Shown here piece after piece: positions 37,431-53,691 of a stretch of DNA of 64,000 nt. The position numbers and the translations under genes were made by a program. Origin of the DNA: Leucocoprinus leucothites (lineage: Eukaryota > Basidiomycota > Agaricomycetes > Agaricales > Agaricaceae); contig JAACJO010000007.1 of the NCBI GenBank assembly GCA_013368445.1, positions 124,001 through 188,000 of the forward strand, written 5' to 3'. Within the stretch, counting starts at the first letter, position 1, and the number at the start of each line of letters is the position of its first letter. Below the pieces are notes generated by a model, which was given only the letters and a program-made list of their open reading frames with translations, had not been told where the DNA came from and made no database searches.

Positions 37431-40040
37431 ATGTCTAGGTATAAACTTGGCGATTTCTGTGTTGATGAATCCCGTCCCATGAAAGTCGCGGTGATTGGTG
37501 CCGGGTACGGCGGTAGGTTCCTTCTTTGCTTCTCTTGGGTTTGGCACTGAAGGCCATCACTAGGTATTATTGCTGGGATCAGGCAGGTGCACCACCGACG
37601 GAATAATCATCCAAAATACTAACCACAATGAACAGGCTTCGCCAAAAGGTGAAAAACATCGACCTCACAATCTACGAAGCAAACGGCGGTGTCGGCGGTA
37701 CTTGGTTTACGAATAAATACCCTGTGGGTATAGCAACTACGCGGTCACTATTAGACTTCTGATCAGTCGTTCCCCAGGGATTGTGCTGTGATATTCCCTC
37801 GCACTGCGTAAGCGCCTTCTGATAAACTTTAGGCCGAGATTTAATTGTATTTTTATCCTTCAGTATCAGCTCACCTTTGAAGCCAATGTAAGCACCACCT
37901 GTTATATGCTTTATGCGCTCGGTATTCACCCGTGATAGAAACACTGGTCCTCCTTTTATTCTCCTGGTCCGGAAATTCTACAATACCTTGAAGGTGTTGT
38001 CGACAAGTACAAATTATGGCCCCTTATCAGACTGCAGCACCGTGTATCTCGTCTGCGCTACGATGAGTCTGCTGGGAAGTGGCATCTCTCGGTTACAAAG
38101 ACTATTCCTGGGGATGAAGCCAAAACCGAACATCTTGAAGATACCGCGGACGTTGTTGTATCCGCACTCGGTTCCCTCAGAATACCATCCTGGCCTGATA
38201 TACAAGGTATCGAGAGCTTCCAAGGAGAGCTAATCCATAGTGCGGAATGGAAAACCAAGGACGGGGAAGGGACTTGGCAAGACACTGTCAAGACTTGGGG
38301 TGAAAAACGGGTTGGTGTAATTGGTGCGGTACGTCCAGGCTGGTGTCTAAATGCCGTGGAAGTCTTCACACTGTGTCTTTCCGAACAGGGGTCATCGGCA
38401 ATCCAGGTTGTTCCAAGTTTACAGCCCCTGGTCAAGCACCTCGTGAATTTTGTCCGTGGAAAGACGTGGATTTCTGGCATTTTCTCGAAGGACAAGCTTA
38501 TGGAGCTCTCGGGAGGCGAGGATATCCAGAACTGTAAGCCAGTCGTCGTAGGGTCCAGGGCTTGTGACTGAGGGTGAAATAATAGATTACTTTCAGGAGA
38601 AAGATTTCCAGAGATTTGAAGATGACAACGAATATCAGAAGTGGCGTCATGGGCTAGAAGACGGGCTTAACGTAAGTATTTTTAGCTTCCCCGCCTAATC
38701 ATCATCATCCACTCAATGTTATCGTCCAAAGGGAGCACATCTTGCTACGTTGTATGGCCATCCTGTGAACCAGTATGCCCAAGAAGAGTTTAGGAAAGAC
38801 ATGCTGCAGCGATTAGCAAAGAAGCCTTGGATCGCAGATCACCGTAAAGATATTCTTTTCCGCCACTAGAACGAGTACTCACACATGTACTCCTGGAAAC
38901 AATAGTCATCCCCGACTTTTCCATTTGCTGTCGCCGACTGACTCCAGGCCCTGGGTACCTCGAAGCTCTCTGCCAAGATAATGTGAGTCGCCATCGAAGT
39001 TTGACTTCTTCTTTGAACTCTATTCTAATCATACATTCACTTACCATCCAGTGCGACTTTGTCTCAGCACCAATCAAACAAATCCTGCCCAACGGGATTC
39101 AAACTATCGATGGCAAAATCGAAGAACTCGACGTCATAGTCTGCGCCACAGGATACGACACATCTGGCAAATCCGGATTCCCCATCATCGGTCGCAACGG
39201 CCTTGACCTCGCAGACAAGTATACACCCCACCCCGTAACTTACCTTGGACTCACAGCCGAAGGGTTTCCTAATTTCTTCCACGTTTTGGGACCTAATTCC
39301 GGCGTGGGCGCTGGATCGTTGTTGGTGTTGATTGAGAGGCAGGTTGATTATATCGTTAAGGCGATTTTGAAAATGCAGAGGGAGAGGTTGAAGAGTATGG
39401 AGGCGAAAAAGGAAGCTGTGGATGACTTTGATGAGTATTTAATGGTATGTTTCCCCCCCCCCGGCTTTATTTTTGGTTTTTGTATAGTGCTGATTCCGAG
39501 AACGTAGAGCTACTTCCCAAAGGTACGCAAAAAAAAAACCCCCCTACGCTTTAAGCCTCCGGTTGTTCATGCATATACACAGACCGCTTTCGGTCAGAAG
39601 TGTCGCTCGTGGTATAAAGTGGGCAAATCCGAAGAGGGAAGAATCGTTGCCTTATGGCCAGGTCGGCTATACGCTCACCGTCACACACACACAAAAATTC
39701 ATGACATTGTTCTCCTAGGATCACCTCTTCACGCCGTACAGACATATGAACACCCTCGCTGGGAAGATTTCAACTACGAGCGATTAGATGGTGAAACCAA
39801 GAATAGGTTTTACTTCCTTGGAGATGGTAACACTGTTGCTGACATGAAACCAGGAGAAGATAGTGCGTAATCGTTTCTGCGGCTGCTGCTATTTTCATGT
39901 TTTGATCTCTTATCTGACTATGTATATTGCAGGGGCATGGTACCTCCTACCCGAGAACATTGATTATCCACCCAGTAAGTTCTGAATTACCGATGGAAAC
40001 AGCTTGGCTCTGATGTATCACTATAGTTCCGTCCGACTGA
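37431..40040 (+). CDS. Flavin-dependent monooxygenase (Baeyer-Villiger/FMO type)
   Basis: Sixteen exons: 37431-37512, 37564-37582, 37636-37723, 37778-37807, 37864-37887, 37939-38328, 38389-38533, 38586-38671, 38732-38843, 38906-38982, 39052-39444, 39508-39522, 39583-39661, 39719-39862, 39933-39974, 40027-40040; 579 residues. The FAD site is VAVIGAGYGGIIAGIR, the NADPH site VGVIGAGSSAIQVVPSL, and between them lies FQGELIHSAEW, the FxGxxxHxxxW fingerprint of Baeyer-Villiger/FMO enzymes. YPGLCCDIPSHCYQLTFE and WPGSPLHAV, both assembled by splicing, are typical of fungal members. It should insert oxygen into ketones or oxidise heteroatoms; substrate unknown. One intron has a GC donor (AG|gcaggt). 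Confidence 0.92.
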
Positions 40041-47783: not shown

Positions 47784-49453
47784 ATGGAACGTGTAAAACA
47801 ACTGGCTGGACATTTCAGGCCTACTGGGTTAGCTGCTCTGGAACGCAAGAACCCCGATGATGTGGTTGTCACTATGGCCATTCGTTCACCTCTCTGTAAA
47901 GCAAGGAAAGGAGGGTTCAGGGATGCAAGGTGTGTTGTATACTACAGCAAGATACCGCTTTTGTTGACTTTGGGCTTAGGACAGACGAACTATTACTAGA
48001 GATGTACAAGGTCTGCACTCAGGTCTACAGCCACGAAGCTCCGGACCAAATACTGAAGTCGATATTAGCACTCTATAGCTCAGTCGAAAATTGATCCCAA
48101 ACTGGTGGGCGACATCTGTGTTGGCACTGTCCTCACGTCCGACGCTATGTATGCCGCGAGGTCTGCGGCTCTCGCAGCTGGGTTCCCAGAAACTACTCCC
48201 GTTCAGGTGGTAAACAGGTTCTGCTCGAGTGGTCTCATGGCCGTGAGCACTATTGCAAACCAGATACGAAGTGGAGCTATTGAAGTCGGGCTGGCTGTTG
48301 GTGTTGAGAGCATGTCTGAAAAGTACGGTTGCCTTCTTGTTGCCGAGGCGCACATAATTCTGACTCTAGGTCTTTAGTCCCGACAAGGGTGGTCCGGAAC
48401 AAAGCGAACTTATTTCTTGTAATCCGGCTTCTCGTGATTGCAAGGAACGTATGGGATGGACGAGCGAAAACGTTGCTGTTGAGTTCAACGTTACTCGCGA
48501 GGAGCAAGACGCCTTTGCTGCCGAGTCTTTCCAGAAAGCGGAACGTGCTCAGAACCTGGGATATTTCAAGGACGAGATTGTCCCATTTGCTGTTTTCCAG
48601 AAGGATCCAAAAACTGGGGAGAAACGACAAGTCATTGTGACCGAGGACGACGGGATTAGGCACGGAACGACGAAGGAAGGGCTGGGCAAGATCCGGCCTG
48701 CATTCCCGCAATGGGGAAATTCGACTACGACGGGTGGAAATGCTAGTCAGATTACAGATGGTGCTGCTGCCGTGTTGTTAATGACTCGGAGAAAGGCAGA
48801 GGAGCTCGGGCTGACAATTTTGGCGAAGTATGTCATTACGACTGTTGCTGGTTTGGCTCCACGCATCATGGGTATTGGTCCCATATACGCAATTCCGAAG
48901 GCACTGTCGCTTGCTGGCATAACGATTGATGATGTGGACCTCTTCGAGGTGAGCTCTTTCTTTGATATCAACCGCGCTCAATCTGATCTTCATTATTAGA
49001 TTAATGAGGCATTTGCTTCGCAGTGTGTTTATTGTATCAAGGCACTGAAGCTTCCGGTGTAAGTCTTTGAAACCACTGAACCAGGTTTATAGTAAGCGCT
49101 GATGGGTTGCCAGTGAGAAGGTATAGCCGTGTTGATCAAACGCATGATTCCACATGTTTACCACTGAATAGGTCAACGTGAACGGAGGTGCTATTGCTTT
49201 CGGCCACCCATTAGATGAGTGAAAATTTAATGTATGCTCTGATGGTAGACTTACCTATCTCCTTTGTTACGTGCCACCGGGGCGCGCCAGGTTGCGACAG
49301 GTCTCAACGAGTTGCATCGGAGAAAGGGAAAGGTATGTGCACGGCTACTTCCTTGTTTACAATAGTGCTCATTGTATCGCGCCCTAGGTCCTTGTCACCT
49401 CGATGTGCATCGGTACTGGTATGGGCGCCGCAGCTGTGTTCCTACGAGAGTAA
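47784..49453 (+). CDS. POT1: Peroxisomal 3-ketoacyl-CoA thiolase
   Basis: Nine exons: 47784-47929, 47980-48010, 48069-48322, 48378-48948, 49000-49058, 49114-49120 (7 nt), 49172-49214, 49271-49332, 49388-49453; 412 residues. The N-terminus MERVKQLAGHF carries a type 2 peroxisomal signal (R-V-x5-H-F), as in Pot1/ACAA1. The nucleophile Cys is in VNRFCSSGLMAV (about 111); INEAFASQ, VNVNGGAIAFGHPLGATGAR and CIGTGMGAA supply the other active-site motifs. It catalyses the last step of peroxisomal beta-oxidation. The final motifs depend on a 7-nt exon (TGAGAAG) and on an AT-AC intron at 49215-49270. Confidence 0.94.
49215..49270 (+). other. Non-canonical AT-AC intron in the thiolase gene
   Basis: The coding sequence reads CCA TTA G, then 56 nt beginning ATGAGT and ending TTAC, then GT GCC ACC GGG GCG CGC. 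Removing exactly these 56 nt restores GHPL-G-ATGAR, the invariant thiolase motif, in frame. No GT-AG choice does so. The donor ATGAGT looks like a U2-type GTGAGT with A at +1, not the U12 consensus ATATCC, and the acceptor is AC. Confidence 0.85.
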
Positions 49454-49747
49454 GGCTGTCGCATAGTCATTTGTGTGCGTGATGATTGTTTTGGTTAGCC
49501 TGTGGTGGTAGTGATTTCTATCCTCCGATTCTCGTATATTGTCATTCCTACTACAAGGCATCGACGGTCTACGCCTGTCCCCCGACAGTTAATAAGGGTA
49601 CTAGTATGAAAGAAAGTGTATGTGTGCACAAAAATAATAGTCGGCTTCAAAACCAGTCTGCTATGATACAAATCACCATCACCATGGACTGCTCCATCAT
49701 TCACGTCAACCACCGTCTCCTACGCCAGTGTCTTGGAATCAGCGCCC

Positions 49748-50769
49748 TTAGTACGGAACAATCCTGCCGTCGGGGGCCTTCACGGCATCCTCAACGGGGA
49801 TATCCTGACGGCTCTTGAGCTCGCGTTTGTTGCTGTAGGGAACAATTCTACCGTCGGGGGCCTTGACTGCATCCTCAACGGGAATGTCCTGGCGAACCTC
49901 AAGGCTCCGTTTGCTATAAGGGACAATTCTACCGTCAGGGGCCTTGACGGCGTCCTCGACGGGAATATCCTGGCGTGCGACGACTTCTCGTTTGTACGGA
50001 ACAATTCTGCCGTCTGGTGCCTTCACAGCGTCCTCAACAGGAATATCCTGGCGCTTCTCCCGCTTGTAGGGAACAATTTGACCATCGGGAGCTTTGACAG
50101 CGTCCTCGACAGGAATGTCCTGACGTTTACTGTATGGGACGATTCTACCGTCAGGAGCTTTGACTGCGTCCTCGACAGGAATGTCCTGCCTCGCCTCGAG
50201 CTCTCGCTTGTATGGGACGATTTGGCCATCAGGAGCTTTCACAGCATCCTCGACGGGGATGTCCTGACGTTTACTGTAAGGAACGATCCTTCCGTCAGGT
50301 GCCTTGACTGCGTCCTCAACAGGGATATCTTGTCGGGATTCGAGCTCTCGCTTGCTGTAGGGAACAATTCTGCCATCGGGCGCCTTGACTGCATCCTCTA
50401 CGGGTATATCCTGGCGTTCGACGAGTTCCCGCTTGTAGGGAACGATCCTGCCGTCAGGTGCCTTCACAGCGTCCTCCACGGGGATGTCTTGACGAGGGCT
50501 GAGGTCTCGCTTGTATGGCACGATCCTACCGTCAGGGGCTTTGACGGCATCTTCGACGGGTATGTCTTGTCTTCGGGAATAGGCATTGATTGGCTCGAGG
50601 GGAGTGGGTTCACGTTGCTGGATGGCACGCTGAACGATGGTTTAGAACTTTTTTGACAAAGTAGTGAAAGAGAACTCACTGCCATTGGCATGGGCATGTT
50701 CAGGGGGATGCCCATGGCTTGGCAGGTAAAGAGGACGAAAAGTGTGGAAATGATGAATGAGGAGCGCAT
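49748..50769 (-). CDS. Secreted KEX2-processed repeat precursor with 11 peptide copies
   Basis: Two exons, 50680-50769 and 49748-50629, joined by a 50-nt phase-0 intron; 323 residues. MRSSFIISTLFVLFTCQAMG is a signal peptide. After a short pro-region (REPTPLEPINAYSRR) there are 11 copies of QDIPVEDAVKAPDGRIVPY, nearly all ending in KR, SKR or NKR, the Kex2 sites; the last copy ends at the stop. Short variable spacers (DLSPR, ELVER, ELESR, ELEAR, EKR, EVVAR, SLEVR, ELKSR) precede most copies and end in Arg; two copies have none. The core is almost invariant: only R15 becomes Q in two copies. This architecture is that of fungal KEX2-processed repeat proteins, which include pheromones, repellents and dikaritin RiPP precursors. 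The peptide itself is not one I recognise. Confidence 0.9.
49751..50569. repeat. Coding tandem repeat, 11 units of about 72-81 bp
   Basis: Cores of 57 bp recur from 49751-49807 (last copy) to 50513-50569 (first copy). Units differ at many third codon positions while the protein stays the same, so the array is old or under strong protein-level selection rather than recently amplified. Confidence 0.92.
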
Positions 50770-51293: not shown

Positions 51294-53691
51294 ATGTCAG
51301 ACCCGCGCTTCGCTCGACTCAAAACAGATCCTCGTTTTCGACGCCCTAAAAAGAAACAACAGAAAGTTGTCATTGATGAGCGGTTCAAGTCTGTCTTTGA
51401 TCAGACAAAGGGCAAGAAGGGCAAGGGCAAGGGTAAACGTGCGTGCTGATGGTCGTTGTCAATCGAGCTCTCCCAAATGTGCTCATAGCTCTTAAATAGC
51501 ACTAGTGGATAAGTATGGCCGAACACTTTCAAAAACTCATGAAGAAGACAACCTGAAGAAATACTATCGGTTAGCTCCTGCCTCAGACGACGACGAGAAG
51601 GACGGTGGGGGTACGGGAGAAGTGACCAAAGCCATTGATTATGCTCGTGGAGAAGTTCTCATGGAATCGTCGGACGAGGAAGAGGACCAAGAGGGAGAGG
51701 ACACTGAAGTTTCTGATCAAAGCGATACAGAAGAAATTGTTCGGATTGGTGGAGACCATGATGAGCTGGAAATCGACCTTGACGAGGATACCTATGCAGA
51801 ACTTGATGCCCAGGTGGCAGCTTACGCAAAAACCAGGAAGGACTTGGACGAAAAGGAAGAGAAAGAAGAAGTTGGTGTTGTGAACCGAACTCGACGGCTT
51901 GCAGTGGTGAATCTGGACTGGGATCACGTCAGGGCGTCACACCTTTACAAAATCTTTTCCTCACTTGTCTCCTCCACGGCGCCACACGTTCCAGTCAATG
52001 ATACTCCGACATTTGGAAAAGATGGTGGGCCGAAGAAAGGGAAGGGTGGGGCTGCACCCGTTGCAAGAGGCACTATTCTCTCTGTGAGGGTATATCCGTC
52101 AGAGTTTGGCAAGGCACGAATGGAAAGGGAGGAAAGGGAGGGCCCTCCGGTGGATATTTTCAGAAGAAAGCAGAAAGAATCAAAAGAGATCAACGAAAAG
52201 ACGATATATGAAGTTGGTGATGAGAATGAGTATGACGAAGATGCTTTGCGGCGCTACCAGCTTGAGCGGCTGAGGTGTGTCTCAATCTCTGGTTCCTCTT
52301 CTAATAGCGTCAATGAATGACTATAGATATTATTACGCCATCGTTGAATGTGATACGACGGAGGCAGCCTCGCACATTTATAACCAACTAGAGGGAACAG
52401 AGCTGGAAAGGTCGGCTAATGTTTTTGACCTCAGTTTTGTTCCTGAAGATATGATATTTGAAAATGACCCGCGGTTCGTTTAAAACTCTACTTCACTGGC
52501 TGAAAATGACTTTGGTGAAGGGACGAAGCAACTGAGGACGTATCAGCCGATTACAAGCCAGTGGACTATGTCACTGATGTATGTTCTTGACCTCTATCCG
52601 CTTTTCATTTACAAACGTTCCTCAAGGCCCTCCGGCATTCGAAAGTCAAGCTCACCTGGGACGAGGACGATCCAGAGCGATATCAAGTAACACGCAGAAC
52701 CCTCACACGTCAAGAGATCGAGGCTGCTGATTTCAGAGCATACATCGCATCTTCCTCGTCAGAGGATGAAGACGAAGGCGGCAATGAGGACAAGGTCAAG
52801 AATTCCCGGAAGGGCAAAGATGTTTCTCGGCAAAAACTGCGCGCTCTCCTCCTTAGCGGAAATGACGACGGGCTGCCAGAAGGATGGAATAGCGAGGGAG
52901 AAGGGAGTGACGTTGATATGGAAATTACATTTACTCCTGGGTTGAGTGAAAAAACAGAGGGTGAGGAGACAACTCTGGATAAATATCATCGAAAGGTCCG
53001 AGAGAAAAGGAAGAAGAGAAAGGAAGAGCGGAAAGAGAGCAGTAAAGCAAAAACCGAGAAGGGTAGGGCTGGAAAGGTTGAAGGTGACGACTTTTTTGGT
53101 TCTGCGAGCGGCGAAGAGGATGAGAGCGATAAGGAAGCTCCAAAAGATGTTGGCAAAAATGTGGGCGAAAAGAAAGCTCGAAGACGAACACCCCCTAGGA
53201 AGGAAAGTACAGCGGAAGAACTGTCTCTCATTGCTTCCTCTCGGAACGTCAATGAGGAACCGAAGCATTTCGACATGAAAGCCGTGCTTAGGGCAGAGAA
53301 ACGCAAGGGGAAAAGGAACAAGAAGAACCAGAAAAATAAAAATGCTGGAGAGCAAGAACTACAAGAGGATTTCACGATTAATGTCAGCGATGACCGATTC
53401 AAAGCCTTACACGAGGATCACCAGTTCGCTATTGATCCCACTAACCCTCAGTGAGTTATTTATACTACCAATCATAACCCAGAAATCGACTCCCCGATTA
53501 GGTTCAAGGAAACGAAAGGAATGAAGGCATTCCTGGAAGAGCGTCAACGTCGACAGAAGGGAGAGCGAGGGGAGGATCACCAGCGTGTAGATCAGCCTCA
53601 AGTCAACGATCGAGGGTTAAAAAGTCTCGTTGAAAGCGTAAAACGTAAAAGCCAGGAAGCTCATAGCAATGGTAAACGGAGACGGGTGTAG
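51294..53691 (+). CDS. ESF1: ESF1-type 18S rRNA-processing factor
   Basis: Six exons: 51294-51438, 51500-52274, 52327-52473, 52521-52578, 52627-53450, 53502-53691; 712 residues. MSDPRFARLKTDPRFRRPKK and VDKYGRTLS at the N-terminus, the RLAVVNLDWDHVRASHLYKI RNA-binding-like block, YYYAIVECDTTEAASHIY, KLTWDEDDPERYQVTRR and the C-terminal NUC153 motif (VSDDRFKALHEDHQFAIDPT) are diagnostic. The protein is extremely rich in charged residues, as expected of a nucleolar SSU-processome factor needed for early pre-rRNA cleavage. I chose MSDPRF as start; the frame upstream is open from 51189. Confidence 0.94.

What the first reader, a model, noticed from the sequence alone, without database searches (positions are those of the whole stretch)
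49748..50769. Secreted precursor with 11 copies of a 19-residue peptide between Kex2 sites
Seen: a signal peptide, then 11 near-identical cores QDIPVEDAVKAPDGRIVPY, flanked by KR/SKR/NKR and by short variable spacers ending in Arg. The core has only one variable position (R/Q) while the spacers vary freely, and copies differ at many synonymous sites. Known: fungal KEX2-processed repeat proteins yield pheromones, surface repellents or dikaritin-type RiPPs. Inference: the selected product is the core peptide, perhaps with N-terminal Gln cyclised after cleavage at the spacer Arg and with the C-terminal Tyr exposed after Kex1-type trimming. I see no DUF3328/UstYa-like, methyltransferase or oxidase gene next to it that would mark a modified RiPP cluster; neighbours are thiolase and ESF1. 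So it may be a stand-alone signalling or cell-wall peptide of unknown function.
Basis: partly seen in the sequence, partly recalled or inferred. Interest (0 to 1): 0.9.

Follow-up and report, generated by a model that had tools for sequence, protein, structure and literature searches.

The report
Mushroom precursor carrying eleven peptide copies
A predicted fungal gene, likely from a mushroom of the Agaricus family, encodes a protein with eleven near-identical copies of a 19-residue peptide; it is predicted to be secreted and cut into free peptides that likely act outside the cell, and it belongs to a peptide family already found in other mushrooms, whose function is still unknown.

Summary
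On the minus strand, 50769..49748, a gene with one predicted 50-base intron encodes 323 residues: a signal-peptide-like start, a leader and 11 cores QDIPVEDAVKAPDG[R/Q]IVPY. All 19 codon columns vary between copies, only one changes the residue (pS 0.78, pN 0.02), so selection most likely holds the peptide itself. It is not an orphan: related precursors occur in Tricholoma, Amanita, Serendipita, Rhizoctonia and Ceratobasidium, and the core matches the 18-mer that Vogt et al. 2022 (PMC9769878) detected as a linear pyroglutamyl peptide from Coprinopsis cinerea KEP 497993, whose knockout had no phenotype. All ten linkers carry KR right after the core or after S/SN; seven also end in a single-Arg [LV]xxR before Gln, the published expanded Kex2 motif. 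The genome encodes a kexin, a glutaminyl-cyclase-like protein and a DPP IV-type peptidase. None of 16 UstYa matches lies on this contig, against a dikaritin. Verdict: a new member, with unusually many copies, of a known mushroom KEP family; predicted linear secreted peptide, function unproven.

The parts
49748..50769 (-). whole coding region with intron; 323 aa precursor
50680..50769 (-). exon 1 (30 codons, ATG, signal-peptide-like start)
   Evidence: hydrophobic stretch SFIISTLFVLF, mean Kyte-Doolittle 2.45; no signal-peptide predictor run
50630..50679 (-). predicted 50-nt intron GTGAGT...TTCAG
   Evidence: from frame and splice consensus; no RNA data
49748..50629 (-). exon 2: most of the leader, 11 cores, linkers, stop
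50570..50712 (-). leader (IPLNMPMPMA...INAYSRR), interrupted by the intron, ending in dibasic RR
   Evidence: sequence; leader similarity to 8 of 13 relatives tested
50513..50569 (-). core 1
50435..50491 (-). core 2
50357..50413 (-). core 3
50276..50332 (-). core 4
50210..50266 (-). core 5 (Gln variant at position 15)
50132..50188 (-). core 6
50066..50122 (-). core 7 (Gln variant at position 15)
49994..50050 (-). core 8
49916..49972 (-). core 9
49835..49891 (-). core 10
49751..49807 (-). core 11, followed directly by the stop codon

Best explanation
The predicted gene encodes a repeat precursor related to Coprinopsis cinerea KEP 497993, which is predicted to be secreted, cut by kexin at KR and at single-Arg [LV]xxR sites and trimmed, and would likely release eleven linear pyroglutamyl 19-mers ending in Tyr that likely act outside the cell as a signal. 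Shown here: the repeat anatomy, the near-absence of residue change at saturated synonymous divergence, the homology of the core (and in part the leader) to other Agaricomycete precursors, and kexin, glutaminyl-cyclase-like and dipeptidyl-peptidase genes in the same genome. Known for the relative (PMC9769878): its peptide is made, linear, pyroglutamylated and ends in PY or PYK. Inferred: splicing, secretion, cutting and Gln cyclisation in this species; a Kex1 gene was not searched for. Least certain is the signalling role (about 0.4) as against a role towards other organisms (about 0.35); the confidence given is for family and processing.
For: 11 of 11 cores start with Gln directly after a basic residue, and 10 of 10 linkers put KR after the core, in 5 of 10 with S/SN between. 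7 of 7 single-Arg spacers have Leu/Val at P4 and none has Asp at P3, which fits the expanded Kex2 motif LxxR and the statement that Asp at P3 is unfavourable (PMC8528282, passages); the core's internal Arg (9 of 11 copies) sits in PDGR, with Asp at P3. pS 0.775, pN 0.018 over 55 pairs. Homologs: 7 proteins at E 4e-33 to 3e-6, 9 further ones at 6e-40 to 1e-13 with the profile. The window core scores 43.5 bits on a profile made without it, the C. cinerea core 30.5 bits on the family profile; 0 of 100000 shuffles reach either (the profile holds near-duplicates such as P0001/P0002). Kexin exon C5:1033683-1034318, best PDB match Kexin 1r64, E 1.6e-70, with a P-domain match beside it; glutaminyl cyclase C5:790242-790907, best match 3si2, E 2.2e-34; DPP IV-type gene C2:481557-482878. 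0 of 16 UstYa matches on contig C7. The C. cinerea peptide was detected as pyro-Q...PY, and products cut after single Arg were seen in Pichia.
Against: No expression, RNA or proteomic data for this species. Deleting KEP 497993 in C. cinerea gave no visible phenotype in growth or fruiting, and KEP-derived peptides were still present in all kex knockouts (PMC9769878), so function and the exact protease are open. Gln at the cut is not universal: 51 of 71 core matches (40 of 60 without the window), 3 more after an XP dipeptide, 17 of 71 neither; Tricholoma has Ala, others Val, Glu, Ile, Phe, Asp or Tyr, or no basic residue within 8. P4 is Leu/Ile/Val in 20 of 32 single-basic sites over the family; the Rhizoctonia-type sites read xYPR. 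The 7 spacers share ancestry and are not 7 independent trials. Leader similarity failed for 5 of 13 relatives. The profile search did not return 3 of the 6 relatives that were in its own query alignment (P0003, P0004, P0006), so the searches are far from complete.
Confidence: 0.72

Rival explanations
1. The peptide is aimed at other organisms (animals, plants, bacteria or rival fungi) and is not a message among the fungus's own cells.
For: Vogt et al. favour a biotic role because the knockouts had no axenic phenotype (PMC9769878). Relatives include plant- and root-associated fungi (Serendipita, Rhizoctonia, Tricholoma).
Against: Synthetic peptides tested there showed no activity against five bacterial strains. 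The majority core keeps Gly12 and a final Tyr/Phe in 17 of 17 sequences (the search pattern itself required Tyr/Phe at the end and Gly/Asp/Ala/Ser at 12), and no second locus was found in this genome, more like a ligand kept for one receptor than an arms-race molecule (inference).
Confidence: 0.35
2. It is a dikaritin-type RiPP: the Tyr is cyclised by UstYa-like enzymes encoded elsewhere.
For: Tyr in every core; the genome has 16 UstYa matches on six other contigs.
Against: None on contig C7, which reaches at least 2.0 Mb (the search goes exon by exon and counts are lower bounds); Tyr is the last residue; the relative's peptide is linear (PMC9769878); the probably corresponding KEP type has 0 of 64 members with a DUF3328 gene within 15 genes (PMC7329392).
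Confidence: 0.06
3. It is a structural or surface peptide like the Ustilago Rep1 peptides.
For: Same gene layout: repeats cut by Kex2 during secretion (Rep1 as summarised in PMC8528282).
Against: Short, charged, GRAVY -0.38; peptides of the C. cinerea relative are recovered from extracts and, for one of three, from culture supernatant; its knockout has normal mycelium.
Confidence: 0.08
4. Coding artefact: a DNA repeat that happens to be open.
For: The plus strand is also open through the array, 49667..50656.
Against: Nearly synonymous-only divergence on the minus strand, homologous proteins in several fungi, leader similarity outside the repeats.
Confidence: 0.01

Closest known systems
Coprinopsis cinerea KEP 497993 and its agaricomycete homologs (Vogt et al. 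2022, PMC9769878)
   Same: Secreted repeat precursor; core Q-IPxExxxKxxxGxIxPY; cuts at KR and single Arg; N-terminal Gln; C-terminal PY
   Different: Window core has an extra Asp after Gln (19 against 18 residues) and 8 of 17 aligned residues identical; 11 near-identical copies here; the repeat number and full sequence of KEP 497993 were not in the text I read
Umemura 2020 KEP type G-1/P-2 (#7), PMC7329392
   Same: High Tyr content, 64 genes in 62 strains, 0 of 64 with a DUF3328 gene nearby, mushroom-forming genera including Coprinopsis, Pleurotus, Hypsizygus, Panaeolus
   Different: Its profile figure and member table were not readable here, so the equation is inferred; Tricholoma, Amanita, Serendipita, Rhizoctonia and Lentinula are not in its genus list
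Cantharellales precursors (Rhizoctonia solani, Ceratobasidium: P0010-P0012, P0015, P0016; P0007 is similar but from an unnamed source)
   Same: Leader PMPxAxA...IxxYxKRQ and core tail with APxG...Y
   Different: Core begins with a GDS-type motif, linkers mostly YPR|Q or YRR|Q (KR|Q in Ceratobasidium), a C-terminal tail after the last core
Ascomycete dikaritin precursors (ustiloxin, phomopsin, asperipin)
   Same: Signal peptide plus Kex2-bounded repeats with Tyr
   Different: No UstYa match on the contig, longer core, Tyr at the very end
Ascomycete alpha-pheromone precursors
   Same: Repeats freed by Kex2/Kex1; in one relative (P0004) also XP dipeptides before Gln, as for Ste13
   Different: No direct sequence comparison was made; the STE2 search in this genome gave nothing but no control rang either

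Membership tests
KEX2-processed repeat proteins (KEPs) | Signal peptide for secretion | tested here: inconclusive
   Hydrophobic start by Kyte-Doolittle; no signal-peptide predictor available
KEX2-processed repeat proteins (KEPs) | Several near-identical repeats bounded by KR/RR/KK | tested here: met
   11 cores, 10 of 10 linkers with KR, leader ends in RR
KEX2-processed repeat proteins (KEPs) | Peptides are actually released | not testable with these tools
   needs peptidomics; shown only for the C. cinerea relative (PMC9769878)
KEP 497993 family | Sequence homology of the core | tested here: met
   C. cinerea core 30.5 bits on the family profile, 0 of 100000 shuffles
KEP 497993 family | Homology outside the repeats (leader) | tested here: inconclusive
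   8 of 13 relatives at 16 or fewer of 2000 shuffles, 5 of 13 not; C. cinerea leader not available
KEP 497993 family | About one gene per genome | tested here: met
   Only this locus found with three queries
Dikaritin RiPP | UstYa/DUF3328 gene near the precursor | tested here: not met
   0 of 16 matches on C7
Dikaritin RiPP | Cyclised core | not testable with these tools
   needs mass spectrometry
Basidiomycete lipopeptide mating pheromones | C-terminal CaaX motif | tested here: not met
   precursor ends in IVPY; motif definition recalled

The most novel reading that the evidence does not exclude
This is the hormone of mushrooms: a pyroglutamyl ~19-residue peptide kept from the Cantharellales to the Agaricales, dosed by repeat number, that tells the fungus's own cells about growth or fruiting through a receptor nobody has named.
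Probability: 0.25. Interest if true: 0.8.

Novelty: new member of a known kind. Interest (0 to 1): 0.38.

Why it matters
KEPs are widespread in fungi and their functions are largely unknown (PMC9769878, abstract). This precursor has the most copies of the 17 I saw (11; no relative has more than 5), and its synonymous sites are saturated while the peptide hardly changes, so the conserved unit and its likely ends can be read from sequence. It gives an exact molecule to synthesise and to test beside the C. cinerea deletion strain that already exists.

Tried and rejected
Dikaritin cluster: rejected on the UstYa search. Paralogs with other cores in the same genome: none found with P0006 or P0003 as query. 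Known Pfam domain: none over its cut-off in the window protein. PDB relatives of two cores with linker: 0 at E 10. STE2 receptor: no match, but no control genome rang, so it says nothing. NG86 dS was computable for only 20 of 55 copy pairs, so I used raw pS and pN. The leader looked Cantharellales-like, but a CCT-eta piece put the genome nearest Agaricaceae: 88% to Leucoagaricus (now Leucocoprinus) gongylophorus, 86% to Agaricus bisporus, most other named Agaricomycetes in the list 77-84%; three unnamed proteins reach 86-89% over 67% of the query (120 of 5434 listed). That rests on one gene. Dropped rows: P0008 (E 0.42, judged unrelated by eye); P0004 left out of the profile because its cores are one residue longer, and 4 of its 5 cores matched. 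The core patterns were mine and fix some positions in advance. Each homology search scored only about 8000 candidates, so absent species prove nothing. A paper opened for Kex2 specificity (PMC2515848, passages) had nothing to the point.

Full report
What is there. The minus strand from 50769 to 49748 encodes a 323-residue protein if one predicted 50-nt intron (50679..50630) is removed. It starts with a hydrophobic, signal-peptide-like stretch, then a leader ending in RR, then 11 cores QDIPVEDAVKAPDG[R/Q]IVPY, and stops directly after the last Tyr. Tandem Repeats Finder sees the array as 81-, 78- and 144-base periods. Copies 4-5 and 6-7 share the linker AGTAAACGT and the R-then-Q order, so the Gln variant most simply arose once and was doubled with a two-core unit (inference).

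Selection. Over 55 pairs of copies the mean difference is 11.1 of 57 bases. pS is 0.775 and pN 0.018; all 19 codon columns vary, only column 15 changes the residue. A neutral simulation of similar divergence gave at least 13 variable residue columns in 1000 runs. The copies therefore look old, not freshly homogenised, and each seems held to the same peptide. I had DNA for this precursor only, not for its relatives.

Relatives. A single-sequence search gave 7 related proteins and one that I judged unrelated; a profile search returned 13, of which 9 were new, and missed 3 of the 6 relatives in its own alignment. Taking the majority core of each of 15 relatives, the window, and the C. cinerea peptide, Gly12 is present in 17 of 17 and the last residue is Tyr in 16 and Phe in 1; my pattern had required Tyr/Phe there and one of Gly/Asp/Ala/Ser at 12, and single copies deviate (one Tricholoma copy has Ser). 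Leader similarity outside the repeats is clear for 8 of 13 relatives tested, not for 5 of 13. Identity of the window core is 14 of 17 to one Tricholoma core, 12 to one of Amanita, 10 to one of Serendipita, 8 to C. cinerea and 6 to one of Rhizoctonia.

Known work. Vogt et al. 2022 (PMC9769878; I read the abstract, passages, Results parts 1-2 of 3 and Discussion) found pyro-QIPAELPTKSINGNIEPY and the form with a further Lys, primarily in premature caps, reported at least 13 homologs of KEP 497993, and saw no phenotype of its deletion and no antibacterial activity. Umemura 2020 (PMC7329392; outline, diversity section, passages, Discussion) gives type G-1/P-2 as the most ubiquitous KEP type, 64 members in 62 strains and 49 genera, 0 with a DUF3328 gene within 15 genes; I take it as probably the same family from the genus list and Tyr content, but could not see its profile. 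Le Marquer et al. 2019 (PMC6339444; outline and two sections) do not name this motif in what I read. In the listings of my further searches I saw no title or abstract start that gives this family a function; I did not open the other papers listed there, apart from passages of PMC8528282.

Processing. All 11 cores follow a basic residue with Gln next. The 7 single-Arg spacers read LSPR, LVER, LESR, LEAR, VVAR, LEVR, LKSR: Leu/Val at P4, never Asp at P3. The expanded Kex2 motif LxxR and the dislike of Asp at P3 are in print (PMC8528282, passages). The core's own Arg, in PDGR, has Asp at P3. In the family, 51 of 71 core matches have Gln right after the basic residue and 3 (all in P0004) an XP dipeptide then Gln, as a Ste13-type trimming would leave it; 17 of 71 have neither. 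Six of 17 precursors end exactly on the core's last aromatic residue. Both ends of the mature peptide can thus be proposed: Gln, likely cyclised, and a free Tyr after Kex1-type trimming (a Kex1 gene was not searched for). The genome holds a kexin, a glutaminyl-cyclase-like gene and a DPP IV-type gene; only one kexin was found, where C. cinerea has three kex2 genes, and the count is a lower bound.

Setting. Neighbours are thiolase (48370..48996) and ESF1 (51496..53451, two ORFs) (10 ORFs scanned, 7 with a Pfam match). No second locus was found in the 47-Mb assembly. The 16 UstYa matches lie on six other contigs. One conserved gene places the genome nearest Agaricaceae.

Verdict. Real, and a new member of a known family. 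What I did not see stated in the papers read is the 11-copy case with saturated synonymous sites, and the leader-level link from Agaricales-like precursors to the Cantharellales. The function remains a guess: signal first, biotic role close behind.

Noticed in passing
window 49667..50656 (+): The opposite strand of the array is open for 329 codons from stop to stop; most likely a by-product of the repeat.
   Followed up: partly
window 37939..39507 (+): Two ORFs that look like a flavin-containing monooxygenase by eye, about 10 kb from the precursor; no Pfam match at 0.001.
   Followed up: partly
G000 C20:258820-269766 and C45:126605-137462: Three UstYa matches with the same spacing on two contigs, two of the three with identical scores, as if a UstYa cluster were present twice (haplotype copies or a segmental duplication).
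   Followed up: no
G000 C3, C11, C26, C36 (loci L007-L014): UstYa-like genes in pairs, candidate RiPP clusters; no repeat precursor in the 8 loci of about 3 kb that were scanned; C20 and C45 were not scanned.
   Followed up: partly
P0010 (Rhizoctonia solani): The annotated protein joins the peptide precursor to a Tim17-like domain, probably two genes merged by the gene model.
   Followed up: no
P0004 (metagenome protein): Linkers KR-SP|Q, KKR-TP|Q, KKR-SP|Q, KR-EP|Q: an XP dipeptide before Gln, suggesting a second route (Ste13-like) to the same N-terminal Gln.
   Followed up: partly
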